From assembly GCF_000003195.3 (NCBI RefSeq), contig NC_012878.2:6514462-6578461 (forward strand): a DNA stretch of 64,000 nt. The letters run 5' to 3'. This DNA comes from Sorghum bicolor (lineage: Eukaryota > Streptophyta > Magnoliopsida > Poales > Poaceae). Below the pieces are notes generated by a model. The model saw nothing but the letters and a program-made list of their open reading frames with translations, had not been told where the DNA came from and did no database searches. Position numbers and translations under genes: made by a program. Shown here piece after piece: positions 8,063 to 33,929 of the stretch (positions are counted from its first letter, which is position 1; each line of letters begins with the position of its first letter).

Positions 8063-8127
8063 AAACACTACTACAGGCATTGGTCGATGCCCAAAATGGC
8101 CAAAAACCTCGGCCTTTTTGCGGACCG

Positions 8128-9387: not shown

Positions 9388-9482
9388 ATTAATCAACTAT
9401 GTATCTTAGACATGTTGTGCAATAAGATGAGAAACTATATGTGTGCATGGTTTTCATAATATATATGTTATATTTAATGCAG

Positions 9483-12400
9483 ATGGTAACACGTAATTGG
9501 ATGTATAATGCCGATCGGCGCTCCGAAGAGTTCATTAATGGCGTGCACTATTTCTTAAGTGTGGCCGTGAAAAATAAGAGGGACGGTTTCATGTGCTGTC
9601 CATGTGCCGTGTGCAAGAATTTGACGGAATATTGTAACTCAAAAATTCTTCATTCACACTTATTAAAGTCTGGTTTCGTACCAAACTATATTTGTTGGAC
9701 CAAACATGGAGAAAGCGGCATTATAATGGATGAAGGTGAAGAAGAAGAAGAAGAAGAATTGGACCATGCCAATATTATTGCTCAGTACGGTGGCTTCAAT
9801 GATGTTGCAATGGGGGAGATAATGAAGAAGAGGTAGCGGCAGAAGATGATCGGGGCGATGATGCTTTTGGTGATGCCATCCAGAAGATACACCAATATTA
9901 TTGCTCAGTATGGTGATGCACAAAGAGAATGTGAAAGTGATAAAGAGAAAGCCAAGTTCGAGCGCATGCTAGAGGACCACAGGAAATCGCTATATCCCAC
10001 CGCTGAAGAGGGGCAAAAAAAGCTGGGTACCACACTGGAATTGCTGCAATGGAAGGCAAAGAATGGTACATCTGACAAGGCATTTGGGCAGTTATTGAAG
10101 ATCATAAAAAAGATGCTTCCGAAAGGCAACGAATTGCCCACCACTACGTATGAAGCAAAACAGGTTGTCTGCCCTTTGGGATTAGAAATCCAGAAGATAC
10201 ACGCATGTCCTAATGACTGCATCCTCTACCGTGTGGAGGAATACGAGAATTTGGATGCATGTCTAGTATGTAAGGCATCACGGTATAAGATTAGACGAGA
10301 TGATCCTGGCGATGTTGAGGGTGAAGAACGTCATAGGAAGAAAATTCCTATCAAGGTTATGTGGTATGCTCCTATAATACCACGATTAAAACGTCTGTTC
10401 AGAAATAAGGACAATGCAAAGTTGTTGCGGTGGCATAAAGAAGACCGTAAGATAGACAATATGCTGAGACACCCTACCGATGGATCCCAGTGGAGAGCGA
10501 TAGACAGAGAATTCCCAGATTTTGCAGATGATGCTAGAAACTTGCGGTTCGCCTTAAGTACAGATGGTATGAATCCTTTCGGTGAGGAGAGCAGTAGTCA
10601 CAACACTTGGCCAGTTACTCTATGTATCTACAACCTTCCTCCATGGCTATGCATGAAGCAGAAGTTTATTATGATGCCGGTGCTTATCCAAGGACCGAAG
10701 CAACCTGGCAATGACATAGATGTCTACCTAAGGCCATTAGTTGAGGAACTTCAACTTTTATGGAGCAAACCAGGAGTTCGCGTGTGGGATGAGTACAAAC
10801 AAGAGCACTTTGACCTGCGAGCATTGCTGTTTGTAACAATCAATGATTGGCCAGCTCTGAGTAATCTTTCAGGCCAGTCAAACAAGGGATATAATGCATG
10901 CACACATTGTTATGAAGACCTTGACTGTGTATTTTTGAAAAAATGTCGAAAGGTCGTGTACATTGGCCACCGTTGGTTTCTTCCTGTGAACCACCCAGTA
11001 CGAAAGAAAGGCAAGCATTTTAAAGGCAAGGCAGACCACCGGACCAAACCTCTCAATCGAACCGGGGATGATGTACTCGAAATGGTCAAGGATATAAAAG
11101 TGGTATTTGGAAAGAGACGAGGCAGCGAACCTATTCCCAAGGATGCTAAGGGACACGTACCCATGTGGAAGAAGAAATCCATATTTTGGGAGCTACCTTA
11201 CTGGAATGTCCTAGAGGTCCGCAACGCGATCGATGTGATGCATCTGACAAAGAAACTTTGTGTGAACTTGCTCGGATTCATGGGTGTCTACGGGAAGTCT
11301 AAGGATTCTCTTGAAGCACGACAAGACTTGCAGCGCATGAAATAACGAGACAACCTGCATCCAAAAAAGACAGATGATGGACGTCATTACTTAAGCCCTG
11401 CTAGCTACACTCTGAGCAAAGAAGAGAAGGAAAGCATGTTTGAATGTCTTAGCAGCATCAAGGTCCTATCTGGATTCTCCTCCAATATCAAGGGAATAAT
11501 TAATGTGCCAGAGAAGAAATTCCTGAACTTGAAGTCCCATGACTGTCACGTTCTAATGACGCAATTGCTGCTGGTCGTTTTAAGAGGAATTTTACCTCCA
11601 CACGTACGTCTAGCCACCGTAAAGCTATGTGCATTCCTCAATGCAATTTCTCAGAAGGCAATCAATCCAGAGCAACTAGCTACTCTGCAGAATGATGTCG
11701 TTCAATGTCTCGTCAGCTTTGAGTTGGTGTTCCCTCCATCCTTCTTCGATATCATGACACACCTCCTAGTTCATCTGGTCAAAGAGATTCGTATTCTCGG
11801 TCCTGTGTTCCTACACAACATGTTCCCCTTCGAGAGATTCATGGGTGTCCTAAAGAAATATGTCCATAGTCGTTCCCAGCCAGAAGGAAGCATTGCCAAG
11901 GGCTACGGAACAGAGGAGGTCATAGAGTTCTGTGTTGACTTTATTCCAGACCTTGACCCAATTGGCATTCCTGAATCTCGACACGAGGGCAGACTCAGCG
12001 GAAAGGGAACACTTGGGAAGAAAACATATATTGGTACGGGAGACGATTACTTCAATAAAGCACACTACACAGTTGTCCAGAACTCCTCATTGGTGGAACC
12101 ATATGTTGAGGTACACAAAGATTTCCTACGGTCCCAGTGGCCCGGAAAGAATGAAGCTTGGATAATGCGTCAGCACATGGAAACTTTTGGCCATTGGTTG
12201 CGCAAAAAATGTCAAGGTGATGAAAACATTGATGAGCAGCTTTATTTGTTGGCCAGGCAACCATCATGGCATGTCCTCACGTACAAAGGGTACGAGATAA
12301 ATGGTAACACATTTTACACAGTTGGCCAAGATAAAAGGAGCACCAACCAAAATAGTGGTGTACGCGTGGATGCCACGGATCCAAATGGGAACAGACAAAC

Positions 12401-12875
12401 ATATTATGGACGCATAGAAGACATATGGGAACTAGTCTATGCAGCTAATTTTAAAGTTCCTTTATTCCGGTGCCAATGGGTGAAGATGACCGGAGGTGGG
12501 GTAACAGTCGACAAGGAGTATGGGATGACAACCGTGGACCTTAACAATAGTGGGTTCAAAGACGAACCATTCGTCCTTGCTGCAGACGTGAGTCAGGTGT
12601 TCTATGTCAAAGATATGTCTAGAGGAAAAAATGATGACCACTCAATCATCAATGAGCCAAAGCGCCACATTGTCCTTTCTAGGAAAAGAAACATTGTCGG
12701 AATTGAGGGCAAGTCAGACATTTCAGGCGATTACGAAAGGGATGATCGAATTCCGCCCTTCATAGTCAACAAAGACCCAAGCATTTTGTTAAACAATGAG
12801 GATACTCCATGGTTACGGCAGGATCATAACCAAGGGTCATACGTCAAGAAGAAGTTCACTGTTGTGTCGGCTTGA
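9483..12875 (+). pseudogene. TNP2-type CACTA transposase (Transposase_21), disrupted
   Basis: The start is an ATG at 9483, directly after an AG acceptor-like site. The N-terminal transposon-associated domain (MVTRNWMYNADRRSEEF, CPCAVC, HGE) is followed by an acidic linker. The Transposase_21 core at 9900-11345 carries CPNDCILYR, TDGMNPFGE, GPKQPGNDID and IDVMHL. The C-terminal DUF4218-like (SHDCHVLMTQLLL) and DUF4216-like (YKGYEINGNTFYT) parts run to 12875. There are two defects. The frame is lost between 9836 and 9912, where a short insertion resembles neighbouring sequence. A single TAA at 11343-11345 interrupts the core while the downstream frame of 11436-12875 stays the same. Apart from these it is nearly full length for a grass TNP2. 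It is the presumed catalytic transposase of CACTA C, now inactive unless the stop is read through. Confidence 0.88.
9882..9914 (+). repeat. Short insertion resembling copied local sequence, in the TNP2 linker
   Basis: About 30 bp between the acidic linker and DAQRECESD is made of two pieces found nearby. ATCCAGAAGATACAC also occurs at about 10189-10203, and CCAATATTATTGCTCAGTA also occurs at about 9767-9785. The inserted block shifts the reading frame. This looks like filler copied during break repair. Confidence 0.55.
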
Positions 12876-13830
12876 CTTTGTATGAAACTATATTTGAGAA
12901 TTGTGAATTTTGATGTGTGTAACAAACTTTGTATTCATGACTTTTCCAATTGTTAGAGATCATCAAATGCAAAAATTGTCATGACTATATGTGTCAATTG
13001 TGGATTTTCAACTACACCTTCCCAAAACTTTGTCAAATGCAAAAATGGTCTATATATGAAATGTAGATTTTGATGAGTGGAACAATATTGGTATTCATGA
13101 CTTTTCCATTTGAGACCATCTAGGGTTCCGAAACCGCTGCGTGGCTATGAATTCTCTGAAAATGTATTCATGACTTTTCCATTTGGGACAATCTAGGGTT
13201 CGGTCAAAGGGTGTTTTTGTAAAAACCAATGCTTTGACTTTGGTCAAACTTGGTCAAATGGCCCATTTGATGACTTCAAATGAAAAAAGTTTGAATACAA
13301 AGTTGTTACAGATCATCAAGATCTACATTTTATATATTGTCCATTTTTCCATTTGGATAATTTTGAGCCAATCCTAATCACATTTCTATAAAATCCAAGA
13401 CGGGTTTTGGTCAAACTTGGTCAAATGACAAACTAAATTACTTAAAATGAAAATATTTTGAATACCAAGTTGTTAGATATCTTCAAGATCTAAACTCTTT
13501 ATATACACAACTTTTCCATTTGAGAAAGTTTAAGTTAACAATACCCACCAATTCTTGAATCTCACACAAACTATATGAAACTATATGTGTCAATTGTGGA
13601 TTTTCAACTACACCTTTTCAAAACTTTCTCAAATGTAGAAATGGTCTATATATGAAATGTAGATTTTGATGAGTGGAACAATATTGGTATTCATGACTTT
13701 TCCATTCGAGACTATCTAGGGTTCCGAAACCACTGCGTGGCTATGAATTCTCTGAAAATTCAAAATTCAGTGGTTCAAACTTTTCCAAATGGAAAGTTGA
13801 CCATTAGACAAAATGTAGAACTCGATGAGT
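12876..13830. repeat. Spacer of CACTA C with diverged internal direct repeats
   Basis: No gene is seen. A block of about 180 bp at 12984-13163 recurs at 13580-13759 with scattered changes; it includes GTGTCAATTGTGGATTTTC and GGTTCCGAAACCRCTGCG. A second unit with GGTGTTTTTGTAAAAACC at 13198-13330 recurs at 14585-14700. The spacer is interrupted by the LTR at 13836 and resumes at 14539. Confidence 0.7.
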
Positions 13831-13835
13831 GTAAC

Positions 13836-14538
13836 TGTTGACACCGTTTTTGGGCACGTGTCCAGGATGGCAAGATAAGATGACAGTATGTGGTTTACAG
13901 GATGAGTTGCCGATGAGGATGGTTGACGATAAAGGAGAGGTTGGACGTGACTAAAGTTTACAGGTGATGATGTGTCTGTGCCGATGACTATGATGAGGAG
14001 GTCTGCCGATGACCATGGCAAAAGAGTCTGCCGATGATATAGAGGGGGAGTCTGGAGGCTGCTGATCGGGTTGTGGAAGAGTTTCAATTTGTCACGAGGG
14101 ATAGCTGAGTTATTTCCTTATTTGTTTAAGTCGTTTTGTATACGGATTCCGTGATTTGGAATTCGAATTCTGGTCGTGTTTAGCTATAGCTCTTTGAGCA
14201 GGGTATAAATATGGACCCTAGGGCTTTGTAATGAGACATCTATCAATCAATCAAACACAAGTTTTTACTCATATTCCAGCATCTACTTTTCGACGACTTC
14301 GTCATACTTTTTTCCTTTTTATTACGAGTTCTTAGGAATTCGTCGACTTAAGCTCGGCGTATTCTCGAGTTCCGCGTGAGTACCTCTTGGCCGTGACATC
14401 CGGGCGCATCGCTGTTGTCAGGACCAAAGTATTCGAGTTACCACCTTTGCCGATAGTAAGGTCAAATCGGCTGGCACGCCTTAACATTTGAATCGGGTAT
14501 TAGCCTTTTGTGTTTGCAGATCAGCTTTTGCATCAACA
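13836..14538 (+). mobile_element. Left LTR of the Tat element, structurally a solo LTR (TSD GTAAC on both sides)
   Basis: A 703-bp LTR runs from TGTTGACACC to GCATCAACA. GTAAC precedes it (13831-13835) and GTAAC also follows it directly (14539-14543). A proviral 5' LTR would instead be followed by a primer-binding site. By eye it differs from the right LTR (26119-26822) by six substitutions and one single-base indel, so both come from one recent insertion. A TATA box TATAAATA is at 14204-14211. Confidence 0.93.
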
Positions 14539-15133
14539 GTAACAAACTTTGTATTAATGACTTTTCCATTTGGGACCATGTAGGGTTCGGTCAAACGGTG
14601 TTTTTGTAAAAACCAATGCTTTGACTTTGGTCAAACTTGATCAAATGACCCATTTGATGACTTCAAATGAAATAATTTTGAATATAAAGTTGTTAGGAAA
14701 ATTTTTGAATACCAAGTTATTAGATATCATCAAGATCTAAACTTTTTATATACACAACTTTTTATATGACAAATAGATTTTTTATTTGATGAAAATTATA
14801 CCCTACTACCATTCCGAGTAATCAATAACAAAAATAAAAAGTTTAACGTCAATATGATGTGAAAATAAATTTCTAGTTGATTGGATACAGTTTTTGTAAA
14901 TTTATTAGAATAATATATTTTTGCATTAACAAAATACTAAACATTTCTTACAAAATTATTGCAAATTATAAAAATACAGCAAGATATTTAAGGTTAAAAA
15001 TTTTCATGTGTACATTAAAAAAATTACAATATATGTCACTGTTTAAAAAATATTATGCAAAATATTTAATTTACTATACAATTTATAATATAAACTGTAT
15101 ATATAAACACTTTAAAAACCCTAAACTAAAAAA

Positions 15134-15194
15134 CAGAGCCTTTAGAACCGGCCCATAGTGGGAACCGGTGCTAAAGGGTCGACCCCTATATAAG
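15134..15194 (+). promoter_or_regulatory. Internal subterminal-motif pair plus TATA box ahead of the tnpA-like gene (copy 1)
   Basis: CCTTTAGAACCGGCCCATA and GGGAACCGGTGCTAAAGGG are an inverted pair of the same motif that makes up the ends of CACTA C. TATATAAG at 15187-15194 follows and then a GC-rich leader with repeated CGCCGCC/CAGCGCC. The second copy is at 27399-27453. The array was probably the promoter of the second transposon gene. Confidence 0.65.
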
Positions 15195-15459
15195 CGCCGG
15201 TGCGCCCTGGATCTAAAGTCTTCGTCTTCGTCGAGACACACCTGAACCGCCGCCTCCATCACCAGCGCCGCCGCCGTTTCGTCTGCCCGCGCCGTCGTCC
15301 AGCGCCGCCGCGTGGCCGTCTGCAGCGCCGTCGCGGTCATCATCGCCACCAGCGCCGCCGCGGGCGCCATCTTCTCCACCAGCGCCGCCACCAGCGCTGT
15401 CTTTTCTCCGCGGTGATCTTTCTCCACGTCGATCTCCGGCCGGCCGTCGATCTGCTATA

Positions 15460-16234
15460 GCGCGCGCTCTCTCAATGTATTTATCAAGATCGAACTCCGG
15501 CTCTCTGCAAAATGAATGAATATATATTTTTTGCAGATTATATATATATGCAAAATGATGAATGAATGTATATTAGTTTTTAGTATAATATATATATATA
15601 TATATATATAAACTGCAGAATGAATGAATGTATATTAGTTTTTAGTATATTATATATATATATAATCTGCAAAATGAATGTATATTAGTTTTTAGTATAT
15701 TAGTATATTATATATATTAGTAATTAATATAAGTGTAGGGTTGACCTGTTATAAATTATATTATGCTAATATATATTTGTAATGTATTAATTTTATTCTT
15801 GTATTATTATTGTAGTATTTTTTAGTATAAATTATATTATTCTTGTAGTATTTTTAGTATATATTTGTAGTATATTATTCTTGTATTATTCTTGTATCAT
15901 ATTTTATTTTCTAGTGTGTTGTATATATTATTGTTTGTACTGTTATTCTAGTATTGTTTTTTGAGTATATTATTCTAGTGTATTACTTGGCTTAAAAGAT
16001 TCTAGTATTATTTTTAGAGCACTCCAACACTTTTATTTGTAGTAGTACTAGTAGTAGTATATAAGTCTCTAATATATATTCTAGTAGTGTTTAGCCACCA
16101 AATTTATTCTAATAGGGTTTTGTATATATTATTGTTTGTACTGTATTATTCTAGTATTGTTTTTTAGTATATTATTCTAGTGTATTTCTTATCTTATATA
16201 GAATATATATATATATATATATGTATGGTTGCAG
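15460..16234. other. AT-rich probable intron with TA microsatellites (copy 1)
   Basis: An AT-rich stretch lies between the GC-rich leader and the acceptor (TTGCAG) ahead of the tnpA-like ATG. It contains several (TA)n runs and repeated TATTCTAGTATTGTTTTT phrases. The matching stretch at about 27722-28496 differs mainly in run length. Confidence 0.5.
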
Positions 16235-16242
16235 ACATAGAA

Positions 16243-17401
16243 ATGGCTGACCGTCCTCATGATGATCCTGATTATATGGACCTCATGATGATCCTGATTA
16301 TATGGAAGCTGCCATTCAAAATATGATCGACGACGGTAGTCAGTACTTTATTGATTACCACGAGATCATGCAAGGCAATCCGACTAAGCAACAAGAGGGC
16401 AATGCCCCTGAGCAACAAGAGGGCAATGCGCCTGAGCAACAACTTGTCGTGCAACAAGACGAAAATACTGGCGAGGTATATGTAAATGTAAACATATATA
16501 ATTAATGCATCTCTTACATTATGTTTTAGACTTATTACTTGATTATTAATTTAGTATTTTTGTTTCTATATCTACGTGTAGCCTTCTGGATCGACCTCTA
16601 CGGGGAGAAGCGTACCTCCACGAGGGCCACAGAAGCCGTTGGAGGGCCGCTATGTAATCTCTGAGTTTGAGATAGCTACAGGCAGACCACTTGGTGAGCA
16701 TGCAAATAAATATGTTAGTCACTGTGGATATCTTGTGAGAGATCAAATACCGATCAGTGCTCGTGAATGGAGAGAGAAGCGAGGTGCTCCTGAGATCAGT
16801 TTTGTCTCTGATCGTGACAAGGAGTTAGTTTGGAAAGCCGTCACAGACGTTTTCACCTTCGACACCAACGATGAAGAGTTGAAGGTGCGAATTTATGACT
16901 GGACTATGAAGAAGATGGCAGTACTGTTCCAGAATTGGAAGAAGACTTTGTACAATAAATTTGTTAAGAAAAATGAGACTCCAAATTTCAACCTCAAGCA
17001 ATATGTAAAGCTGAGGGCCTTCTGGGATGACTTTGTGCAGTACAAAACATCAGAAGAGGGTAAGGAACGAGCCATTAGAAATAAAGAGAATACAAGTAAA
17101 AAGACATACCACCATCATATGAGATCAGGTGGTTATAAGAGTGCTGTTCCCAAGTGGGACCGAATGGAACAGGAGATGCTTGCTATGGGGGTCACACCCG
17201 AGACAATAGCAAAGAATTGGAGCGAGCGCTCCAAGCATTGGTTCTACGGTCATGGAGGAAGCATGGACCCAGACACCGGGGCGCTAGTTTGGGGCCAAGA
17301 AATATCTAGAGCAGCAGAGAGACTAGTCCGTGCACGAGAGGCGGTTCAGTCTGGTGAGTTCAGGCCTAACAGGGAGAGGCGGTTCAGTCTGGTGAGTTCA
17401 G
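16243..17401 (+). pseudogene. tnpA-like (En/Spm plant transposase) 5' fragment, copy 1, fused to gag
   Basis: Exons 16243-16475 and 16582-17401 repeat the first part of the gene at 28505-32569. The ATG follows a TTGCAG acceptor. The first exon carries a 26-bp tandem duplication (at about 16248-16299) that shifts the frame, with a Gln-rich tract after it. The second exon encodes the conserved tnpA block (LEGRYVISEFEIATG, AVLFQNWKKTLYNKF, WDDFVQYKTSEEG, GSMDPDTGALVWG). It stops at 17401, where a repeated 28-bp stretch joins it to retrotransposon gag. The open frame from 16639 runs through this junction, making a chimeric frame of 536 codons to 18249. It cannot encode a normal TNPA. Confidence 0.85.
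17336..17401 (+). repeat. 28-bp direct repeat at the CACTA/retrotransposon breakpoint
   Basis: The 28-bp stretch starting GAGAGGCGGTTCAGTCTGGT occupies 17336-17363 and again 17374-17401. The first copy continues into normal tnpA sequence, the second into gag (ATCGGTATCGGCG). Copy 2 of the segment (29598-29639) has it only once. It looks like repair-associated filler. Confidence 0.85.
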
Positions 17402-18815
17402 ATCGGTATCGGCGCCAGCAAGAAGATTATCGATGGGAGGAAGAAAGACGCCGACAGGTGTGGAATCGGCATAGAGATCATTGGAACTGCCCGTTCTTCA
17501 TCCATTGTTGGGAGGAAAATATTAAGCTTCCTACTGTCAGAGACTGCCCTGAGTGCAATGGTTATGATCGGTACGACAGGACTGATCGGCGTTATCCTGA
17601 TGACAATCGGCGATTTGATGGGCCGATCAGAGGAAGAGCATCGGTTCATGATCGGCTGGGGGGCAGGCTTAACGTGCACGATAGGCTTGGTGATCGTGTC
17701 CAATATTTTCCCAGGAACCAGGAAGAGCTCGAGGGGATGGCTAATGCACGAATTCCCGATGAGTTTATATTTTGCAGGGATGCTAACACGTATCGTATGG
17801 AGTCAAGGGAGAACCGACGCCCGGCAGCAAGGCAAAAGCCGCTCCCTCCATGGTGTCCTGAAGGGTTGACCAAGACACAGAAAAGGAGATTGCAGCGTGA
17901 AAGGCAAGAGGAGCTAAACAAGGGCGAAAATTCTGGTCAGTCTGGGGATCAGCAGCAGTCACATCATAAGAAAGGAGGTCCATCGGCAGGAGTTAACATG
18001 GTCTTTATGTTACCGATGGAGTTTCTTGCACCATCCAGTGATGATGAGTTGGAATTTTCTGATCAGATAGCTCAGCTGGCTCTGGATCCGATGACAGCTA
18101 TCTTTGAGAAACCTGCCGATGACGAGAGACAGCATCTCAAAGCTCTGTTTGTCAAAGGAAGGGTTGATGGGCAGCCAATGACCAAGATCCTAGTTGATGG
18201 TGGAGCTGCTATTAATATTATGCCATATGCAGTATATCGGATCCGATGACAGCTATCTTTGAGAAACCTGCCGATGACGAGAGACAGCATCTCAAAGCTC
18301 TGTTTGTCAAAGGAAGGGTTGATGGGCAGCCAATGACCAAGATCCTAGTTGATGGTGGAGCTGCTATTAATATTATGCCATATGCAGTATATCGGAAGCT
18401 TGGAAAAGGGGATCAGGACTTGACCAAGACCGATATGATGCTCAAGGATTTTGAAGGAAACGTGTCTCCAGTCAAAGGGGCAATATGTGTGGAGTTGACC
18501 ATCGGCAGCAAAACCTTGCCGACAACTTTCTTCGTAATTAGTGGAAAGGGTGCTTATAACTTATTGTTGGGAAGAGATTGGATTCATGCCAATTGTTGCA
18601 TCCCGTCTACCATGCACCAATGCCTGGTTCAGTGGGTAGGCGACAAGATTGAGATTGTCCCGGGGGATTCTTCTTATGTCATTGCATCGGCAGAGGCGGA
18701 TACCTATGAAAGGACCAAGTGCATTTCAGGAGAAGTTTGGGAGAAAGATTTTCTCAAAGTTGCCGATTACGAAATTCCACCGATCCAAGCAGTCGGTTCT
18801 GACGATGGTTTTTAA
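17402..18815 (+). pseudogene. Gypsy gag C-terminal part and aspartic protease, frameshifted
   Basis: A charged Arg/Asp-rich stretch is followed by a Cys/His block (WNCPFFIHCWEENIKLPTVR then DCPEC), the zinc-finger type usual in this gag family. The protease region follows, with LVDGGAAINIMP as the active-site loop and LLLGRDWIHA as the flap/C-terminal motif. The catalytic loop reads D-G-G rather than D-S/T-G, a form often seen in plant Gypsy elements. A 155-bp tandem duplication (18086-18395) lies in the protease and shifts the frame, so the frame that starts upstream ends at 18249 and another opens at 18246. Gag lacks its N-terminal half. Confidence 0.85.
18086..18395 (+). repeat. 155-bp perfect tandem duplication in the protease region
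   Basis: The stretch 18086-18240 (ATCCGATGACAGC...GTATATCGG) is repeated at 18241-18395 with no difference that I can see. GG precedes ATCC in both, so the joint has a short microhomology. Since 155 is not a multiple of three it breaks the frame. The identity implies a very recent event, or an assembly artefact. Confidence 0.92.
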
Positions 18816-21800
18816 TGGATAGGTTCGCCGATGATGGAAAATTAGGCCAGGGATTCACATCGGCCGATGATTTGGTAGAAGTAGATATAGGTAATGGTGA
18901 TAAACCTAGGCCTACTTTTATTAGTGCTAAGTTAAATCCTGAGTGTAAGTAGCAATTAATCAATTTGTTAAAGGAATATAAAGATTGCTTTGCTTGGGAT
19001 TATACCGAGATACCTGGTTTAGACCGATCAATTGTTGAACATCGGTTACCCATCAAGTCTGGATTTCGGCCACATCAGCAGCCAGCTCGCCGATGTAATC
19101 CTAATATTCTACCTGATATTAAGGCCGAAATCACTAAGCTTATTGAAGCTAAGTTTATTCGGCAGTGTCGGTATGCCGAATGGATTTCCAATGTCGTTCC
19201 GTTTTACAAGAAAAACGGGAAGCTTCGGGTGTGCATTGATTTCAGGAATCTCAATAAAGCTACGCCGATGGATGGATACCCAATGCCTGTTGCCGATCTG
19301 TTGGTTGACGCCACGGCTGGTCATCGGGTCATCAGCTTTATGGACGGCAATGCAGGGTACAATCAAATATTCATGGCAGAGGAAGATATTCCAAAAACCG
19401 CATTTAGGTGTCCTGGTCATGTTGGGTTATTTGAATGGATAGTCATGACCTTTGGGTTGAAGAATGCTGGTGCTACTTATCAAAGAGCCATGAATTTTAT
19501 ATTTCATGAGTTCATCGGCAAGCTGGTAGAGATCTATATTGATGATGTGGTGGTTAAGTCTGGGGATTTCTCAAAACATCTTGCCGACTTACAGAAGGTA
19601 TTAGAGTGCACAAGGAAGCATGGGTTGAAGATGAATCCCAATAAGTGTGCATTTGGTGTATCGGCAGGGCAGTTTCTTGGTTTCATGGTACATCAAAGGG
19701 GGATTGAAATTAGTCGAAGATCTATTGATGCCATCAATAAAATAGTGGCCCCTACCAACAAGACTGAGCTCCAATCCTTGATCGGCAAGGTAAATTTTAT
19801 CAGGAGATTTATATCCAATCTGTCTGGTAAGATTCGTGCTTTCAGTCCTCTCCTTAAGTTGAAAGCCGATCAAGAGTTTATTTGGGGAACAGAGCAGCAG
19901 TTGGCTTTGGATGAAATTAAGAAATATCTAGCGAATCCTCCAGTTCTAGTTCCACCTCAGCCGGGAAAGCCCTTCAGATTATATTTGTCTACCGATGGGA
20001 CGGTTATCGGTTCGGCTTTGATTCAAGAGTTTGAAGGGAAAGAGCGTGTAATTTATTACTTAAGCAGGAGATTAATTGATGCTGAGACCAGGTATTCGGT
20101 CATTGAGAAGTTATGCTTATGCTTATATTTTTCGTGTATTAAATTGAGGCACTATTTATTATCGGCCGAATGCACTGTTGTTTGCAAAGATGATGTGGTC
20201 CGATACATGCTATCTATGCCGATTATGAGTGGCAGGATCGGTAAATGGATTTTAGCACTGTCGGAGTTCGATCTGCGATACGAATCGGCTAAGGCAGTTA
20301 AAGGACAGATTATGGCCGATTTTGTGACTCAGCATTGCGGTATAGTGGAAGCCTTGGAAGTTGTGCCCTGGACACTTTTCTTTGATGGATCTACATGTGA
20401 CCGGGGGGCAGGAATCGGCATTGTATTAGTTTCCCCTAAGGGGAGGAAGTATGAGTTTTCCTTGCCGATTGTTGCTACATCGCCAAATAATCAGGCTGAA
20501 TATCAGGCTCTGATCAAGGGATTGGAGTTGTTAAGAGAAGTTCGTGCCGGTGCTGTTGAAATTTTTGGGGATTCTATGTTGGTTATAAATCAATTGGCCG
20601 GGAGCTACGAATGCCGAAGTGAAGTTCTCATAACTTATTTCGAAAGAAGCATGCAACTGTTAAAGGAATTCAAAGATTTCCGATTAGAGCATGTTCCTCG
20701 GTTGCATAATGAAGAAGCCAATCGGTTAGCTCAGCATGCCTCGGGATATCAGCCTATGATTAATACAATATCGGCAATTGGTGCCGATGATTGGAGGAAA
20801 GAAATTATTGATTATTTGAAAAATCCATCTAAGAAAGTTGAAAGACGGGTTCGATTTCAAGCAACCAAGTATGTGCTCCTCGAAGATGAATTGTATTATC
20901 GAACTATTGATGGAATTCTTCTCCGATGCCTAGGTGATGATGAAGCTAGAAGTTTAATGAGAGAAGTCCATGAAGGAGTGTGTGGAGCACATCAGTCGGC
21001 TTTCAAGATGAAATGGATGATTAGAAGGAATGGATATTTTTGGCCAACCATACTTGAGGATTGCTTTAAGTATTTCAAGGGGTGTCAAGGTTGTCAAAAG
21101 TTTGGTAACATTCAAAGAGCACCTGCATCGGCCATGAATCCTATTATTAAGCCTTGGCCGTTTTGGGGATGGGCTATCGACCTGATCGGCCAGATTTACC
21201 CACCATCTAGCAAGGGGCATAAGTTCATTCTGGTTGGCACCGATTATTTCACTAAATGGGTTGAAGCTATTCCTTTGAAGAAAGTTACCTCGGCCAATAT
21301 GATTGAATTTGTAAAGGAGCACATTATTTACCGATTTGGGATTCCTCAGACAATCACTACCGATCAAGGCACTATGTTCACATCGGGGGAGTTTGATGAA
21401 TTCGCAATTGGTATGGGGATTAAAGTGTTGAATTCTTCTTCTTATTATGCTCAAGCCAATGGGCAGGCCGAGGCGTCTAACAAAGGAATTATCAAGCTTA
21501 TTAAACGAAAGATTGAAGAGAATCCTAAGCGATGGCATACATTGTTAAATGAAGCACTGTGGTCTTATCGGATGGCTTGTCATGGATCAACCAAGGTGTC
21601 ACCCTATCAATTGGTGTATGGGCATGATGCAGTGTTGCCTTGGGAGATTAAGGCTGGATCCAGGCGATTATCTTTCCAGGATCAGTTAACCGCCGATGAT
21701 TATGCCACTTTGATGACCGATGAGTTGGATGATCTAGCAGGGCATCGGTTAAAAGCTTTAATGAGTATAGAAGAAAATAAGAAAAGAGTTGCTAGATGGT

Positions 21801-22048
21801 ATGATAAGAAAATAAAGGCTAAGGAGTTTGCCGATGGGGATTTGGTGTGGAAATTAATTTTGCCAGTCGGGACTAAAAGTGCGAAGTTTGGAAAGTGGTC
21901 TCCTAATTGGGAAGGTCCTTATCGGATAAGTCGATCGGCTCCTGGTAATGCCTATATTCTAGAAACTCTCGAAGGAGTTGAATTTCCCAGAGCATTAAAT
22001 GGAAAATATTTAAAGAAGTATTACCCCAGCATATGGGTTGATGCATAA
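18816..22048 (+). CDS. pol: Gypsy pol: RT, RNase H, archaeal-type RNase H, integrase
   Basis: The main frame is 18965-22048 (1027 codons). Translated sequence continues upstream from 18816 but is cut by stops at 18813-18815 and about 18950. Residues 75-200 are reverse transcriptase (GKLRVCIDFRNLN, SFMDGNAGYNQ with D127, YIDD at 191-194). Residues 335-400 are the usual RNase H, degenerate at its first motif (LSTDGTVIG). Residues 470-590 are a second RNase H (FFDGS D474, NQAEY E512, GDSML D536, EEANRLA with Asn where Asp is canonical). Integrase has the H669/H676/C707/C710 zinc site and D739, D800 and E836 with 35 residues between the last two. The domain order is that of the Tat clade. The catalytic core looks intact, but the element lacks the start of gag and a primer-binding site, so independent movement is not expected. 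Confidence 0.92.
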
Positions 22049-22206
22049 AAGTTTAAATGCCGATAACATTCCTATCGGCTGGATTAGAGTGTATTTGGGG
22101 ATGGACTTAATGTCTCAAAGGATGCCGATAACAGTCCTATCGGCTAGACTAAGACATTAAGAAAGCTGAAATGCAGAAGGGCAAAGGTGTGTTGCCGATG
22201 AGAGCT

Positions 22207-25200
22207 TCAGATGTTCAGTAGCGCTTGGATTGCCGATATGGCGCGCAGCCGGATCTGATTGGCTGTTTCTATCTCTTTGATATCATCATCGGCAGAACCT
22301 TCTATCGGCTTCAACTTCCTTTTCAACTGCAGCGCTTTGCGACCGTGGACATTTCGTTCTTGTTCAAGGTGCTTGATGGTCTCCGGCAGTTGACTCTCTT
22401 CTTGCTGGGCTTGGGACAGAGCATCCTCTACTTGCTTGAGTTCGGCTAGTAGGGCTTCTCTTTTTGCCGATAGATCAGATACTTTCTGCTTCAGTACATC
22501 ACCTGAGGACTTTAAGGTGCCGATGTTCTTATGTTTCTCATCGGCTAAGAGTTTTTCTTTCATCATCTCCTCAGAAAGCTGGATTTGAGCAGCTCTATCG
22601 GCAAGGCGTCGAGTGGCTCTCTGGTACTGTAGCTGGCGGCTTTCTAGGTGTGCAGCCTGGAAGAGGGGTTCTTCAGCATCGGCAGGAATTTGGCCTCTAA
22701 GGGTCTTGAACAGGGCCTTGGCTGGGTCAGAATCGTTGACCAGTTGAGCTGTGTCTTGATGAAGTATGGCCGATAGCTCTTCCAGCTTAGCCCTGGTTTC
22801 TGCCGATACCAACTGCCCGAGAGGAGCTTGCTTCCTCACCTTCTTCTTCGAAGATATCAATGGCGAAGGAGAATAAGCTGTCGGGAGAATCTTGTTCCTG
22901 AAAATGAGGATGAAATAAGTCATTTTTATGGTCAAAGCTTCGGCAGACGATACTGGTGGAAAATTGGATGACTTACTTGCTTCAAGGCGATTTCTTGCCT
23001 TTGACTCAAAGATACCGATGGAGCTACAGGTTGATCGGCAAGTGTTGCCGATGGAACGATATCAGCTGGAAGTTAACAGAAAAGGTCATAAGATCGAAAA
23101 GAAGAAGCTCATCAACAGTAATTTTGAAGAGAGTACGTTACCTTGAGGAGGGATGATACTTCTCTGAAGTGAGGAAACTACCGATAGTATGATTGAGCCT
23201 GCTGGATCGGTAGTTTGATCGCCTACGTCGGCCGGCACATCTTCTGATTGAGGTGCTTCTAACTGAGGTTCTTTTTGCTGGAGTTCTTCCATCTGTGGTG
23301 CTTCCTGCATTGGTTGGGGAGACGGTGCTTGCTGTGTCTGGACTTCTGGAGGAGAAGGAGAAGACTCCACCGGAATTGGAGACACCAGAGGAGGAGAGGG
23401 AGTTGCCACTTTCTGGCGCTTTGTTCCAGCCTTAGCGTTTTTGGTGCCCTTTCTCTTTGGCTGGCTAGACTGGGGGGCATCGGCACTTTGACGCTTGGCT
23501 TTTGCCGATACACCGGTTTGCTGCAACAATGAAAAGGGGTTTATAAGCACAGATATAGCCGATATAAAAATGAAAGAAAAGGATTTAACAAATTGCCTTG
23601 AAAGCCTGCGCTAGAATGGAAGCAGCTACCGTAGGTGATGTCTGAGTTCTCTTGGTGGTGACTTTCCTGAGGCGCACACCCCGATGCATGATGGAAGCCA
23701 GAGTGGGAGCGTTGTGGCCGATTGAGGAACTCGGGCCTGATGGGAACAAGTCGATTGACTTGCCACTCCTGCTAACCGATGGGGGGATGTTGTCAACCTG
23801 CAAAAGGAATACAAGGGTAAGCTACCGATGGGGATAGTATTGAAAAATGAAACATCGGTTTGAAATACTTACAGTATCATTGGGGACTTCATATTCGGGG
23901 TCGATCATGCCGCGGTATGAGAGGGCCGATCTGCAGAATAGATGCTCTTTCCATTCTGCCCACCATAGCTTGTATGCCTGAGTAATAAAGGCAGCTGGAA
24001 CCCATTCTAACAGATCTACATCTGTATCGGCATTTTGTGGTAGCTGGGCTACTCGAGTCCACTCAAGAAAGTTGGTGATGGGTTCTCTGGGTTTTATCAC
24101 ATCGGCATAAGGAAGTGCAATCGGCAATTGGCCGAAAGCTAGCTGACGAGCTAATGCCGATGGATTGTAAAATTCATAGGTTTGGGGAGAGGTTTTTGTG
24201 CTACCAAAGAAATTCACTGGTATGGCACTGGGAGTCACAATTGCCATCATCACTTCACTATCCCTGTCAAGAGCTTCATCAAATGGGTTGAAGGTTAGAG
24301 GGAGCATACTGTCTGGGTCATCATAAGCGAACCATGGTCGTTCATCTCTGGCCAAGCCCTCATACAGAGTCTGGAAGAATCGACCGATCTGATCCGGATT
24401 ACTCCCTGAACCAGGTAGCACTATGGCAGCTTCGCCAAAGTTCAAGGGGGCACGTGTTGCCGATTCATCTTCACCCAACACATGATTTTCGGCTATATCT
24501 CTTGGGAAGTGCTATGTGAACAAGTTGAAGTCAAGGCGCTTATGCAAATGCAAATTGAGCCACATATTAATAAACCACCAAGGGCCTCCCAAGTTGCCGA
24601 TGGACTGGCCAAGCAGGAGTTTCTGGGCTACTTGATGGAGAAGATGGTAAGCAGCGCCGAGCAAGTATCGGCCGAGAGGAAATTGGCCACCGTTAGCCAG
24701 TCTCTCTGCTGCCGATAGATAGACAGAAGTCGGTCCTGCCGATCGACCACAGAACACGAACTTGTCCAGCCACATGTTCAGAAAGGTGGTTTGTTCCTTT
24801 ATGGTGACAGGCCCCTTCCCACGGTACTTCTGAATGTACCCCGACCAACCGCCGATAGCGCGAGTCTCCACTTTGGCACTAGGAGCGGTATCAAAGAAGT
24901 GGGTGCTATCGGCAGAAGAGACGTCTAGACCAGTGAGCATAGCTACATCGGCAAGAGTGGGAGAAACAGGGCCGTGGCCAAAGACGAAAGCATTAAGGGT
25001 ATCTGACCAAAAATAAGACGCAGCTATCAACAGTGATTCGTTCTTGTGCATATCGGCAATAGATAGCCTGATGCATTGGGATAGCTTCCTTTCATCCCAC
25101 TGGACTTCATTCGAATTGCGGACTCTCAAGAACCAGTCTTTCCACCCTACAGTAGGGCTGGGCCAAGAGCGAAAGGTGTCTTTCCACAGATCTAAAGAAA

Positions 25201-25474
25201 AGTTTTCGGCTCTAAAGGGAATCCTGTTGGTTTCTGCATTGATAAGGTCAGTTGGATCTGGATTCCCTAGAGGGCCGAGACATTGGAGGTGTGGTTGATC
25301 GGTGGGGATGACAATTTTGTTGGACAACTCCTAGTGTTTTGGGGAATAAAAATACAAAGAAAAAGGAAAAGGAAGATATTCAGTAAGATGAATCACGGAT
25401 GAACAGGAATGCGAGAAAAAGTACAGGAGATGAGATGGAGATCTGACCTCAGGGACGACGAAGCTAATGGCCAT
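22207..25474 (-). pseudogene. Antisense gene with plant mobile domain (PMD) inside the retrotransposon
   Basis: On the minus strand a five-exon model fits: 25474-25448 (ATG, nine codons), 25330-23873, 23797-23597, 23520-23142 and 22897-22207. The introns have GT-AG borders, except a probable GC donor at 23596. Exon 2 is 1458 nt and encodes a plant mobile domain (FSLDLWKDTFRSWPSPTVGW, AASYFWSDTLNAFVFGHGPV, SPTLADVAMLTGL). Exon 4 is Pro/Gln/Ser-rich and basic, and exon 5 is a long coiled coil (AKLEELSAIL, EMMKEKLLADEKHKN, ALLAELKQVEDALSQAQQEE). A TATA box is at 25628-25635. Antisense frames in this position are known in Tat elements, and PMDs occur both in hosts (MAIN/MAIL proteins) and in transposons. 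A TAG at 24512-24514 interrupts exon 2 in frame, and the last junction does not keep phase, so this copy is probably dead. Its function is unknown. Confidence 0.78.
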
Positions 25475-25627
25475 TTTGTCGTGAAGAGAACGTTTAAGGG
25501 CACCGGAGTTGATGAAGAGGAGTGCTTGTCGGAGGTCTTGAAGGTTGTGAATGGCGTCGTCGCTGGAAAAGTAAAAGTAGGGATGGTGAAATGATGTAAT
25601 GGAGAAGGAGTACCCGAGAAGGAACTA

Positions 25628-25635
25628 TTTATAGG
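25628..25635 (-). promoter_or_regulatory. TATA box of the antisense PMD gene
   Basis: On the minus strand the sequence reads CTATAAATAG, about 155 nt upstream of the ATG at 25474. A pyrimidine-rich leader lies in between. Confidence 0.6.
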
Positions 25636-26105
25636 ATAAAACGGGCAAGGGCAAATCTGACTTATCTCTTTGCCGCATCCGAGAAACCCGAGGATGCTCA
25701 GGTAGATATGGTAACTGTTCGCACGGTAATCAAGAGATTGTGCAGGTGATTTGACGGAGGGCGGTCATTACCTGGAGATATTTTACTGTGCGGGATCTTC
25801 TGGTCGGTCCATCGGCAGCATACTGTAATGGTCATATTGCCGATGGGCGGATAAAGTAAAGGTGGCTATTGGTACGAACGTCCTGATTAGTCCATCGGTA
25901 GATCTTTGTAACAGTAATGTTGCCGATGTGCGGATGAGAAGGAAGTGCCCGTTCAGGAAGTTGAGAATTTCGAGGAATCTGTAGGAGAATAAGATCGGAG
26001 TTGTTTGGATTGAGGTTGTCAGTTACCAGATTAGGAGCATTAATTGCAGGAAAAGGCATCATTACTGCAGAAAATTTCGGAGCATTAATAGTTTCATACT
26101 CCGAA

Positions 26106-26118
26106 ATTGGGGGGCATG
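26106..26118 (+). other. Polypurine tract of the Tat element
   Basis: AATTGGGGGGCATG sits immediately before the TGTTG that starts the right LTR, the expected place for the plus-strand primer. Confidence 0.85.
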
Positions 26119-26822
26119 TGTTGACACCATTTTTTGGGCACGTGTCCAGGATGGCAGGATAAGATGACAGTATGTGGTTTATAGGATGAGTTGCCGATGA
26201 GGATGATTGCCGATAAAGGAGAGGTTGGACGTGACTAAAGTTTACAGGTGATGATGTGTCTGTGCCGATGACTATGATGAGGAGGTCTGCCGATGACCAT
26301 GGCAAAAGAGTCTGCCGATGATATAGAGGGGGAGTCTGGAGGCTGCTGATCGGGTTGTGGAAGAGTTTCAATTTGTCACGAGGGATAGCTGAGTTATTTC
26401 CTTATTTGTTTAAGTCGTTTTGTATACGGATTCCGTGATTTGGAATTCGAATTCTGGTCGTGTTTAGCTATAGCTCTTTGAGCAGGGTATAAATATGGAC
26501 CCTAGGGCTTTGTAATGAGACATCTATCAATCAATCAAACACAAGTTTTTACTCATATTCCAGCATCTACTTTTCGACGACTTCGTCATACTTTTTTCCT
26601 TTTTATTACGAGTTCTTAGGAATTCGTCGACTTAAGCTCGGCGTATTCTCGAGTTCCGCGTGAGTACCTCTTGGCCGTGACATCCGGGCGCATCGCTGTT
26701 GTCAGGACCAAAGTATTCGAGTTACCACCTTTGCCGATAGTAAGGTCAAATCGGCTGGCACGCCTTAACATTTGAATCGGGTATTAGCCTTTTGTATTTG
26801 CAGATCAGCTTTTGCATCAACA
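26119..26822 (+). mobile_element. Right (3') LTR of the Tat element
   Basis: A 704-bp LTR (TGTTGACACC...GCATCAACA) is nearly identical to 13836-14538. TATAAATA is at 26488-26495. GTAAC follows at 26823-26827. Repeated TGCCGATGA phrases occur in its first 250 bp. Confidence 0.95.
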
Positions 26823-29639
26823 GTAACAAACTTTGTATTAATGACTTTTCCATTTGGGACCATGTAGGGTTCGGTCAAACGGTGTTTTTGTAAAAACCAA
26901 TGCTTTGACTTTGGTCAAACTTGATCAAATGACCCATTTGATGACTTCAAATGAAATAATTTTGAATATAAAGTTGTTAGAAAATTTTTTGAATACATCA
27001 AGATCTAAACTTTTTATATAGACAACTTTTTATATGACAAATAGATTTTTTATTTGATGAAAATTATACCCTACTACCATTCCGAGTAATCAATAACAAA
27101 AATAAAAAGTTTAACGTCAATATGATGTGAAAATAAATTTCTAGTTGATTGGATACAGTTTTTGTAAATTTATTGGAATAATATATTTTTGCATTAACAA
27201 AATACTAAACATTTCTTACAAAATTATTGCAAATTATAAAAATACAGCAAGATATTTAAGGTTAAAAATTTTCATGTGTACATTAAAAAAAATTACAATA
27301 TATGTCACTGTTTAAAAAATATTATGCAAAATATTTAATTTACTATACAATTTATAATATAAACTGTATATATAAACACTTTAAAAACCCTAAAGGGCCT
27401 TTAGAACCGGCCCATAGTGGGAACCGGTGCTAAAGGGTCGACCCCTATATAAGCGCCGATGCGCCCTGGATCTAAAGTCTTCGTCTTCGTCGAGACACAC
27501 CTGAACCGCCGCCTCCATCACCAGCGCCGCCGCCGTTTCGTCTGCCCGCGCCGTCGTCCAGCGCCGCCGCGTGGCCGTCTGCAGCGCCGTCGCGGTCATC
27601 ATCGCCACCAGCGCCGCCGCGGGCGCCATCTTCTCCACCAGCGCCGCCACCAGCGCTGTCTTTTCTCCGCGGTGATCTTTCTCCACGTCGATCTCCGGCC
27701 GGCCGTCGATCTGCTATAGCGCGCGCTCTCTCAATGTATTTATCAAGATCGAACTCCGGCTCTCTGCAAAATGAATGAATATATATTTTTTGCAGATTAT
27801 ATATATATATGCAAAATGATGAATGAATGTATATTAGTTTTTAGTATAATATATATATATATATATATATAAACTGCAGAATGAATGAATGTATATTAGT
27901 TTTTAGTATATTATATATATATATATAATCTGCAAAATGAATGTATATTAGTTTTTAGTATATTAGTATATTATATATATTAGTAATTAATATAAGTGTA
28001 GGGTTGACCTGTTATAAATTATATTATGCTAATATATATTTGTAATGTATTAATTTTATTCTTGTATTATTCTTGTAGTATTTTTTAGTATAAATTATAT
28101 TATTCTTGTAGTATTTTTAGTATATATTTGTAGTATATTATTCTTGTATTATTCTTGTATCATATTTTATTTTCTAGTGTGTTGTATATATTATTGTTTG
28201 TACTGTTATTCTAGTATTGTTTTTTAGTATATTATTCTAGTGTATTACTTGGCTTAAAAGATTCTAGTATTATTTTTAGAGCACTCCAACACTTTTATTT
28301 GTAGTAGTACTAGTAGTAGTATATTAGTATATAAGTCTCTAATATATATTCTAGTAGTGTTTAGCCACCAAATTTATTCTAGTAGGGTTTTGTATATATT
28401 ATTGTTTGTACTATATTATTCTAGTATTGTTTTTTAGTATATTATTCTAGTGTATTTCTTATCTTATATAGAATATATATATATGTATGGTTGCAGACAT
28501 AGAAATGGCTGACCGTCCTCATGATGATCCTGATTATATGGACCTCATGATGATCCTGATTATATGGAAGCTGCCATTCAAAATATGATCGACGACGGTA
28601 GTCAGTACTTTATTGATTACCACGAGATCATGCAAGGCAATCCGACTAAGCAACAAGAGGGCAATGCCCCTGAGCAACAAGAGGGCAATGCGCCTGAGCA
28701 ACAACTTGTCGTGCAACAAGACGAAAATACTGGCGAGGTATATGTAAATGTAAACATATATAATTAATGCATCTCTTACATTAGGTTTTAGACTTATTAC
28801 TTGATTATTAATTTAGTATTTTTGTTTCTATATCTACGTGTAGCCTTCTGGATCGACCTCTACGGGGAGAAGCGTACCTCCACGAGGGCCACAGAAGCCG
28901 TTGGAGGGCCGCTATGTAATCTCTGAGTTTGAGATAGCTACAGGCAGACCACTTGGTGAGCATGCAAATAAATATGTTAGTCACTGTGGATATCTTGTGA
29001 GAGATCAAATACCGATCAGTGCTCGTGAATGGAGAGAGAAGCGAGGTGCTCCTGAGATCAGTTTTGTCTCTGATCGTGACAAGGAGTTAGTTTGGAAAGC
29101 CGTCACAGACGTTTTCACCTTCGACACCAACGATGAAGAGTTGAAGGTGCGAATTTATGACTGGACTATGAAGAAGATGGCAGTACTGTTCCAGAATTGG
29201 AAGAAGACTTTGTACAATAAATTTGTTAAGAAAAATGAGACTCCAAATTTCAACCTCAAGCAATATGTAAAGCTGAGGGCCTTCTGGGATGACTTTGTGC
29301 AGTACAAAACATCAGAAGAGGGTAAGGAACGAGCCATTAGAAATAAAGAGAATGCAAGTAAAAAGACATACCACCATCATATGAGATCAGGTGGTTATAA
29401 GAGTGCTGTTCCCAAGTGGGACCGAATGGAACAGGAGATGCTTGCTATGGGGGTCACACCCGAGACAATAGCAAAGAATTGGAGCGAGCGCTCCAAGCAT
29501 TGGTTCTACGGTCATGGAGGAAGCATGGACCCAGACACCGGGGCTCTAGTTTGGGGCCATGAAATATCTAGAGCAGCAGAGAGACTAGTCCGTGCACGAG
29601 AGGCGGTTCAGTCTGGTGAGTTCAGGCCTAACAGGGAGA
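26823..29639 (+). repeat. Duplicated CACTA C segment, copy 2
   Basis: This is the counterpart of 14539-17377. Here the sequence continues without a break into the rest of the tnpA-like gene, so this copy is in its original context. Confidence 0.93.
27399..27453 (+). promoter_or_regulatory. Internal motif pair plus TATA box (copy 2)
   Basis: The inverted ACCGGT-type motifs are followed by TATATAAG at 27446-27453, as at 15134-15194. It lies ahead of the tnpA/Ulp1 gene and is its likely promoter. Confidence 0.65.
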
Positions 29640-32569: not shown

Positions 32570-33048
32570 ACATTGGGAGAAAAAACTCTACTACAAAACA
32601 AAGATATTGTAGCACTTTCTTGTAACATATTCATCAATATGTTCCTGAGAAATTTCATAGTAACATAAAGTAGTGTGTTACAGACTTCGATTGTAACACA
32701 AAACACTTTTTCTATAAAAATGTGTTACTGACAAAAGTTATAGTATCATAAAACTAATGTTAGAAGCAAAATGTTACAAAAGAGTATTATATTGTAACAT
32801 ATAAATGGAACACATAAAATGTGTTACAAATATATGCCCTGTAGTAACACAAAATAGTGTTACAGTCTAAGTGTTACAAAGAAACATATACATATGAACC
32901 TCCTATTCATAGGCGACACAACATCGCACCTAGGTGTCATCAAGGCTATTAGGCAATCACATCGTGGTCATCACATTAGAATTAAGTAATAATAAATAGG
33001 CAATTTAATATGTTAGTTCAATACCTACGCCTGTTATCAATTTATTAA

Positions 33049-33290
33049 GGCCTTGTTGAGTTCAAAAAATTTACAAAAAAAATCAGATTCCTCATCACAT
33101 CGAATCTTGTGGCGCATGCATTAAGCATTAAATATAAATATAAATAATAACTAATTACATAGTTTGTCTGTAATTTGCAACACGTATCTTTTGAGCCTAG
33201 TTAGTCCATGGTTGGACAATATTTGTCAAATACAAACGAAAGTGCTACATTGTCCATTTTGCAAAAAAAAAAAATTGAACTAAACAAAAA
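33049..33290. mobile_element. Tourist-like MITE
   Basis: The left end GGCCTTGTTGAGTTC is preceded by TAA. The right part (TTTTGAGCCTAGTTAGTCC, ATATTTGTCAAATACAAACG, GAACTAAACAA) matches 1-120. The right tip is degenerate. Confidence 0.8.
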
Positions 33291-33747: not shown

Positions 33748-33929
33748 AATTCTCTCTCCATTCCAAATTACAAGACACATTAGTTTTTACATAGATTTGA
33801 TATGTATCTAAACATGACAATTTTTACATAGATTTGATATGTACCTAAACATATGTTATATCTAGATATATAACAAAATTGATATACCAAAAAATCAAAG
33901 TGATTACAAATTGGAATAAAGAGAATATT
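33748..33929. mobile_element. Stowaway-like MITE
   Basis: The left end TAATTCTCTCTCCATTCCAA and the right end TTGGAATAAAGAGAATATTA are imperfect inverted repeats next to TA, about 180 bp apart. An internal ACATAGATTTGATATGTA unit is present twice. Size and ends fit Stowaway. Confidence 0.7.

What the first reader, a model, noticed from the sequence alone, without database searches (positions are those of the whole stretch)
13831..29639. Three GTAAC target copies and a CACTA segment on both sides of gag-pol: a likely unequal exchange between a solo LTR and a full retrotransposon
The order is GTAAC, LTR, GTAAC plus 2.84 kb of CACTA C, truncated gag-pol, LTR, GTAAC plus the same 2.84 kb of CACTA C continuing to its end. 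A proviral 5' LTR would be followed by a primer-binding site and gag; here it is followed by its own target duplication, as a solo LTR is. Crossing-over between a solo-LTR allele (break in tnpA) and a full-element allele (break in gag) predicts exactly this. The two LTRs (six substitutions by eye) and the two CACTA segments differ to a similar small degree, so insertion and exchange were both recent.
Basis: partly seen in the sequence, partly recalled or inferred. Interest (0 to 1): 0.75.

Follow-up and report, generated by a model that had tools for sequence, protein, structure and literature searches.

The report
Misrepaired retrotransposon with duplicated flank
A retrotransposon that had jumped into another transposon in a sorghum-like plant genome was later rebuilt by faulty DNA repair, which left a lone-looking LTR, a copied stretch of neighbouring DNA and a headless element; it is a clear example of a known kind of genome wear, not a new kind of element.

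Summary
The anatomy is real. GTAAC stands at 13831, 14539 and 26823; the LTRs are 13836-14538 and 26119-26822; 14539-17377 repeats 26823-29639. Joined flanks match other copies of the host CACTA without a gap at the insertion point. The CACTA/gag joint is spanned only here among 40 scored genome places. Five other family members put the gag break 2.43-2.45 kb inside the 5' LTR; that stretch is missing here.

Three things change the interpretation. (1) The joint is not a crossover: 4-nt and 2-nt microhomology flank a 24-nt insert copied from 38 bp upstream. (2) LTR differences are uneven: 5 of 6 lie in the first 91 bp, against 12 of 51 in nine control pairs (p = 0.007), so the left LTR looks like a 5'/3' hybrid. 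(3) Insertion and rearrangement probably differ in age, roughly 1 Myr (wide interval) and 0.16 Myr.

I prefer one event: a broken 5' LTR primed repair synthesis on the 3' LTR, copied 2.84 kb into CACTA, and was end-joined to the gag stump.

The parts
9426..12875 (+). CACTA transposase reading frames of the host element (Transpos_assoc, Transposase_21/tnp2, DUF4218, DUF4216)
   Evidence: Pfam hits above cut-off in three consecutive ORFs
12884..13830 (+). host CACTA DNA left of the insertion: repeat-rich stretch between the transposase gene and the second gene
   Evidence: self-comparison; in other genome copies, clearest in L009, this stretch is an array of 679-bp units
13831..13835 (+). target-site duplication copy 1 (GTAAC)
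   Evidence: sequence; joined flanks align gap-free across this point in 21 of 26 CACTA loci, which are 19 of 23 distinct places
13836..14538 (+). left LTR, 703 bp, solo-like; probable hybrid of the old 5' LTR (at least the first 91 bp) and a copy of the 3' LTR
   Evidence: alignment and polarised differences
14539..14543 (+). target-site duplication copy 2 (GTAAC), directly behind the left LTR
   Evidence: sequence
14539..17377 (+). duplicated CACTA segment (left copy), ends inside the CACTA second gene
   Evidence: 98% identical to 26823-29639; protein homology to CACTA second-gene proteins ends at residue 266 of ORF 16582-18249
17378..17401 (+). 24-nt templated insert, exact copy of 17340-17363, reached through 4-nt microhomology GAGA; joins gag through AG
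   Evidence: sequence
17402..26118 (+). truncated Ty3/gypsy-type interior: gag without its first 2.43-2.45 kb of leader plus N-terminal part, protease, RT, RNase H domains, integrase, 3' region with antisense ORFs
   Evidence: Pfam; five other family members
16582..18249 (+). open frame that runs in frame from the CACTA second gene through the insert into gag
   Evidence: ORF list; native frame on both sides by protein homology
18084..18396 (+). perfect tandem duplication, period 155 bp, inside gag-pol; shifts the frame; spanned only here among the places scored
26119..26822 (+). right LTR, 704 bp, ordinary 3' LTR behind a G-rich tract
26823..26827 (+). target-site duplication copy 3 (GTAAC)
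   Evidence: sequence
26823..29639 (+). original (donor) CACTA segment, continuing past 29639 in the normal second gene
   Evidence: homologous proteins such as P0003 and P0014 continue as the right copy does

Best explanation
A full element (about 12.4 kb in other copies, by LTR spacing) sat in the CACTA element, flanked by GTAAC. A double-strand break arose in or next to its 5' LTR. The left end, its 3' strand ending in LTR sequence, paired with the 3' LTR about 11.7 kb away (on the sister chromatid, the homologue or the same molecule) instead of with its proper partner. Repair synthesis copied the rest of the LTR, the GTAAC behind it and 2.84 kb of CACTA. The nascent strand then came off, slipped back 38 nt at GAGA, copied 24 nt more, and was end-joined at AG to the other broken end, which had lost 2.43-2.45 kb of leader and gag (polymerase-theta-type joining). 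Shown: the end structure, the templated insert, the deletion, the absence of a second such joint among the places scored, and uneven LTR divergence. Inferred: one event, where the break was, the direction of copying, and the enzyme.
For: Donor segment lies close by and starts exactly behind the homologous LTR. The acceptor side lacks 2432-2446 bp against five family members. The joint has a 24-nt insert templated 38 bp upstream on the same strand with 4-nt and 2-nt microhomology; 1 of 40 scored places spans it. The left LTR shows two rates: 5 differences in the first 95 bp, 1 in the next 608; nine control pairs give 12 and 39 (Fisher p = 0.007; p = 0.004 with three further pairs, 0.006 without the pair from a tandem element). 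The distal part shares 11 rare states with the right LTR, the first 95 bp none. Both copies carry their own later mutations. In helq-1 mutant C. elegans, end joining of extended, failed repair intermediates leaves duplications of ~100 bp to 10 kb with microhomology and occasional templated inserts; the authors say such inserts are in the majority in plants, which lack HELQ (PMC8654963, passages). Proximal repair duplications in primates show microhomology, filler and deletion (PMC2671141, section 7).
Against: No read or second accession was seen, so one event versus two cannot be told from sequence. The first 95 bp of the LTR is about twice as variable as the rest in control pairs too (1.4% against 0.7%), which weakens the hybrid argument, and it rests on six substitutions. 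Two of the three right-derived states in the first 91 bp also occur together in one other LTR (L058), though over the first 95 bp L058 is no closer to the right LTR than the closest other copies are (3 differences each). Copying 2.84 kb before end joining is above the ~1 kb median of the C. elegans duplications, which were rare in wild type. The 11 shared rare states could have been inherited from the parent element; six other pairs share 1 to 6 in the same part.
Confidence: 0.5

Rival explanations
1. One reading: a solo-LTR allele broken in the CACTA second gene was joined to a full-element allele broken in gag.
For: Gives the same order and the same hybrid LTR, because a solo LTR is itself a 5'/3' hybrid. 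Solo LTRs exist in this family: 1 of 28 sampled LTRs (L031).
Against: Needs two alleles, two breaks on two homologues and a misjoin. The joint has no homology, so it would be end joining and not crossing-over. No solo allele could be sought here.
Confidence: 0.2
2. Two steps: end joining first made a tandem duplication of gag-to-CACTA (LTR-interior-LTR-CACTA-gag'-interior-LTR-CACTA), then recombination between the first two LTRs removed the first interior.
For: Both steps are ordinary. LTR-LTR recombination in this family is seen as a solo LTR (L031) and a middle LTR of a tandem element (L045), 1 each of 28. Tandem duplications are known products of failed repair (PMC8654963, passages).
Against: Needs two events and an intermediate of about 24-25 kb that is not seen; sequence alone cannot separate it from the one-event model.
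Confidence: 0.22
3. Assembly error: two haplotypes or two repeats joined wrongly.
For: No reads were available; the 0.4% difference between copies is of the size that allelic differences can have.
Against: The window has no N. The joint holds a templated insert with microhomology on both sides, which overlap-based misjoins are not expected to make, and is spanned only here among 40 scored places. Polarised mutations lie on both copies.
Confidence: 0.05

Closest known systems
Solo LTR made by LTR-LTR recombination
   Same: Left LTR with GTAAC on both sides and no primer-binding site; probable hybrid of 5' and 3' LTR
   Different: The 3' part of the same insertion is still present 2.84 kb further on, with a third GTAAC
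Repair-mediated duplication by synthesis-dependent strand annealing (PMC2671141, abstract and section 7 seen)
   Same: Nearby donor, microhomology, filler, deletion at the acceptor
   Different: Priming would have come from an LTR, so the copied tract carries an LTR end and a target duplication with it; the tract is longer than the 619 bp maximum given in that abstract, and the deletion far longer than its 1-15 nt
Polymerase-theta end joining of failed repair intermediates (PMC8654963, passages seen)
   Same: Duplication in the 100 bp to 10 kb range, microhomology, templated insert
   Different: Template was ectopic (the other LTR) and not the allelic sister position; enzyme not tested here; the cited duplications were from helq-1 mutants
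Truncated LTR retrotransposon (illegitimate recombination; recalled)
   Same: Loss of 5' leader and N-terminal gag through a microhomology joint
   Different: The lost part is replaced by a copied stretch of the host CACTA

Membership tests
Ty3/gypsy LTR retrotransposon | RT before RNase H before integrase in one frame | tested here: met
   ORF 18953-22048: RVT_1, RT_RNaseH, RVT_3, H2C2, rve in this order
Ty3/gypsy LTR retrotransposon | 5' LTR followed by primer-binding site and gag | tested here: not met
   Left LTR is followed by GTAAC and CACTA; 2432-2446 bp of leader/gag missing. A remnant of a member, not an intact one
Solo LTR | one LTR with the same 5-bp duplication on both sides | tested here: met
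   13831-14543
Solo LTR | no interior of the same insertion left | tested here: not met
   interior and 3' LTR at 17402-26822, closed by the third GTAAC
Unequal homologous crossing-over | homology at the new joint | tested here: not met
   4-nt and 2-nt microhomology only, plus 24-nt insert
Solo-allele by full-allele exchange | a solo-LTR allele in the population | not testable with these tools
   one genome held
Synthesis-dependent repair closed by end joining | nearby donor, filler, microhomology, acceptor deletion | tested here: met
Synthesis-dependent repair closed by end joining | dependence on RAD51/polymerase theta | not testable with these tools
   needs genetics
CACTA (En/Spm) transposon as host | Transposase_21 (tnp2) gene | tested here: met
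   9837-11345, E 7.9e-88
CACTA (En/Spm) transposon as host | CACTA terminal inverted repeats with 3-bp target duplication | tested here: inconclusive
   no convincing pair between 1-13000 and 31000-42000

The most novel reading that the evidence does not exclude
A further fate of LTR retrotransposons besides intact, solo LTR and truncated: LTR-primed ectopic repair that overruns the LTR, copies the target duplication and kilobases of host DNA, and is closed by end joining. It would mimic a solo LTR beside a truncated element, would mislead LTR-based dating and element counts, and could be a general way in which transposon-rich genomes duplicate flanking DNA (here even making an in-frame CACTA-gag open frame).
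Probability: 0.4. Interest if true: 0.5.

Novelty: new variant of a known kind. Interest (0 to 1): 0.36.

Why it matters
Solo LTRs are usually read as simple LTR-LTR recombination and LTR divergence as insertion age. This locus suggests that both readings can fail: a solo-like LTR can be one end of a larger misrepair, and most of an LTR pair can be younger than the insertion. The signature (target duplication, copied flank, templated joint, headless element) can be searched for genome-wide. I saw no description of this arrangement in the titles and abstract starts listed (one search listed nothing); those searches cover open-licence papers only.

Tried and rejected
Normal family structure (CACTA between LTR and gag as a rule): rejected. 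Of 40 matches scored out of 1726 first-look candidates, 1 spans the joint, and it is this locus. Of 42 homologous proteins (from 7993 scored candidates), 11 match only the CACTA part, 30 only the gag part, and one (P0041, 31%) aligns from residue 257, but its own first 115 residues resemble gag by eye. Conversion of the first 91 bp by another family member: not supported. The differences are private to the left LTR (2) or right-derived (3); two of the latter are seen in 1 and 2 of 36 other LTRs, both in L058, which is no closer to the right LTR over the first 95 bp than the closest other copies. Error burst in the newly made copy: not supported. Polarising 13 CACTA substitutions with up to 26 loci (three pairs of loci overlap, so at most 23 places) gives 5 left-derived, 4 right-derived (one of them, 15200, on 5 of 6 letters) and 4 weak or mixed. 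Independent insertions at the same site: not pursued, since three identical GTAAC and a shared 2.84-kb flank make it very unlikely. No family member was found in viral contigs. CACTA ends were not found. One literature search returned nothing.

Weak points kept: without the control pairs the LTR clustering looked stronger (permutation 32 of 20000) than with them (p = 0.007). The 36 family LTRs are those most like the left LTR, a biased sample. One of the nine control pairs (L045/L046) includes a middle LTR of a tandem element. Three further pairs with other spacing were left out of the control count; with them the control is 16 of 73 (p = 0.004), and without L045/L046 it is 11 of 49 (p = 0.006). 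Target duplications could be checked in 5 of the 9 pairs and match in 4. Genome searches score only the best candidates, so 'only here' is a statement about the places scored.
Full report
Where it is. The window lies at C9:6514462-6578461 of a held 709-Mb genome in 846 contigs.

What is there. GTAAC occurs at 13831, 14539 and 26823. The LTRs are 13836-14538 and 26119-26822. The segment 14539-17377 repeats 26823-29639; over LTR plus segment there are 19 substitutions and 9 gap openings. The host is a CACTA element: its transposase frames at 9426-12875 match Transposase_21 and associated domains. When the flanks are joined with one GTAAC, the result aligns without a gap at the insertion point to other CACTA copies; such alignments occur in 21 of the 26 loci given, which are 19 of 23 distinct places because some loci overlap. 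So this is one insertion, with its target duplication now present three times.

The joint. The left CACTA copy agrees with the right one up to 17377. Then follow 24 nt, identical to 17340-17363 and to 29602-29625. The end GAGA at 17374-17377 matches the GAGA in front of the copied stretch (4 nt; sequence). In four of five family members fetched the gag sequence around the break reads AGATCGG, so the second joint has 2 nt (AG); the fifth aligns only from 17402. In those five, the break lies 2432-2446 bp inside the 5' LTR, so the leader, the primer-binding site and the first part of gag are gone. A relative (P0004) has 472 residues before the homologous point, including the Retrotrans_gag domain. 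A search with 17302-17477 gave 40 matches (40 scored of 1726 candidates): 1 (this locus) spans, 36 end at 17377, and 3 begin at 17400.

The LTRs. Six substitutions separate them, at LTR positions 11, 38, 63, 87, 91 and 677. Within the pair alone, a change point as strong as this is reached in 32 of 20000 permutations (61 of 20000 over the whole 3.5 kb). I then used 36 other family LTRs as controls. Polarised, positions 38 and 91 changed in the left LTR; 11, 63, 87 and 677 in the right. In the distal part both share 11 rare states; in the first 95 bp none. Nine LTR pairs of other elements show that the first 95 bp is about twice as variable as the rest (12 of 853 sites against 39 of 5461). Even so, 5 of 6 against 12 of 51 gives p = 0.007, and the result holds when three further pairs are added or one doubtful pair is dropped. 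I read the left LTR as a hybrid: the old 5' LTR up to somewhere between positions 91 and 677, then a copy of the 3' LTR. The number of differences is small and the control LTRs were chosen by similarity to the left LTR, so this is good but not strong evidence. By number of rare states the right LTR ranks first and the left joint third of 38 LTRs (14, 12), which fits an older insertion but also a divergent parent.

Ages. With 1.3e-8 substitutions per site and year (rate quoted for grasses in PMC7251063, passages), the distal LTR plus CACTA (14 of 3425) gives 0.16 Myr (0.09-0.26) for the separation of the two copies. The first 95 bp gives about 1.0 Myr (0.33-2.4) after correcting for its higher variability, 2.0 Myr (0.66-4.7) without. 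If the hybrid reading is right, the insertion is older than the rearrangement. In PMC7251063, potential conversion tracts were reported in 25% of LTR pairs (abstract), so partial homogenisation alone is common.

Mutations since. Of 13 CACTA substitutions, 14907, 15137, 16112, 16522 and 17092 are left-derived; 14753, 15200, 17283 and 17298 are right-derived (15200 on only 5 of 6 letters); 14697, 14701, 15809 and 16143 are weak or mixed. Both copies have aged, as expected of real DNA of the same age.

Mechanism. All need an end-joined CACTA/gag joint; none is a homologous crossover at that joint. I prefer (a) because it needs one break and one allele, and because the joint looks like interrupted synthesis. 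The model has support from C. elegans helq-1 mutants, where end joining of extended, failed repair intermediates leaves duplications with microhomology and templated inserts (rare in wild type); the same authors remark that plants lack HELQ and show mostly templated inserts (PMC8654963, passages). Primate repair duplications have the same marks, on a smaller scale (PMC2671141, section 7). Sequence from one genome cannot separate (a) from (b) and (c).

Side effects. The joint happens to be in frame: ORF 16582-18249 runs from the CACTA second gene through 7 residues of insert into gag; chance 1 in 3, no sign of function. A perfect tandem duplication of period 155 bp at 18084-18396, about 0.7 kb from the joint, shifts the gag-pol frame; 1 of 81 matches (40 candidates scored of 3043) spans its joint, and it is this locus. 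It could belong to the same repair episode, but nothing ties the two together.

Verdict. Interest moderate.

Noticed in passing
18084-18396: Perfect tandem duplication (158 matching bases, period 155) in gag-pol; among 81 matches from the 40 candidates scored, only this locus spans its joint.
   Followed up: yes
51651-51967: Another tandem duplication, period 158, 2 mismatches in 159 aligned bases; in a different region of the window.
   Followed up: no
L009 (whole), and other CACTA loci: The host CACTA family carries a tandem array of 679-bp units between the transposase gene and the second gene, eight in L009; the LTR element sits in one such unit.
   Followed up: partly
L045 (G000:C7:60088117-60088818): LTR with a G-rich-tract end on one side and a primer-binding-site start on the other: probably the middle LTR of a tandem LTR-interior-LTR-interior arrangement, a sign of unequal LTR recombination in this family.
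   Followed up: partly
G000:C4:47602492 and 47626295; C8:9895879 and 9922062; C4:21716909 and 21743109: LTR pairs with unusual spacing: 23.8 kb (same outer 5-mer ACTCT on both sides) and twice 26.2 kb.
   Followed up: no
L028 (G000:C1:25921000-25930000): A related element (LTR about 80% identical) has its 3' LTR, with interior in front, inserted in another copy of the same CACTA family at a different place.
   Followed up: partly
22207-25764, minus strand: Antisense open frames in the 3' interior; 24515-25330 matches the plant mobile domain PF10536, E 6.5e-16; three others tested match nothing in Pfam.
   Followed up: partly
18953-22048: pol frame matches two kinds of RNase H (RT_RNaseH and RVT_3), a mark recalled for the Tat/Ogre group of Ty3 elements.
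   Followed up: no
41020-61812: CACTACAAGAAA at 41020 and TTTCTTGTAGTG at 61801-61812 with inverted ends (221 bp at 76%): probably a second CACTA element; a further CACTACAAGAAA at 57676.
   Followed up: no
16582-18249: In-frame fusion of the CACTA second gene with gag, 555 codons.
   Followed up: partly
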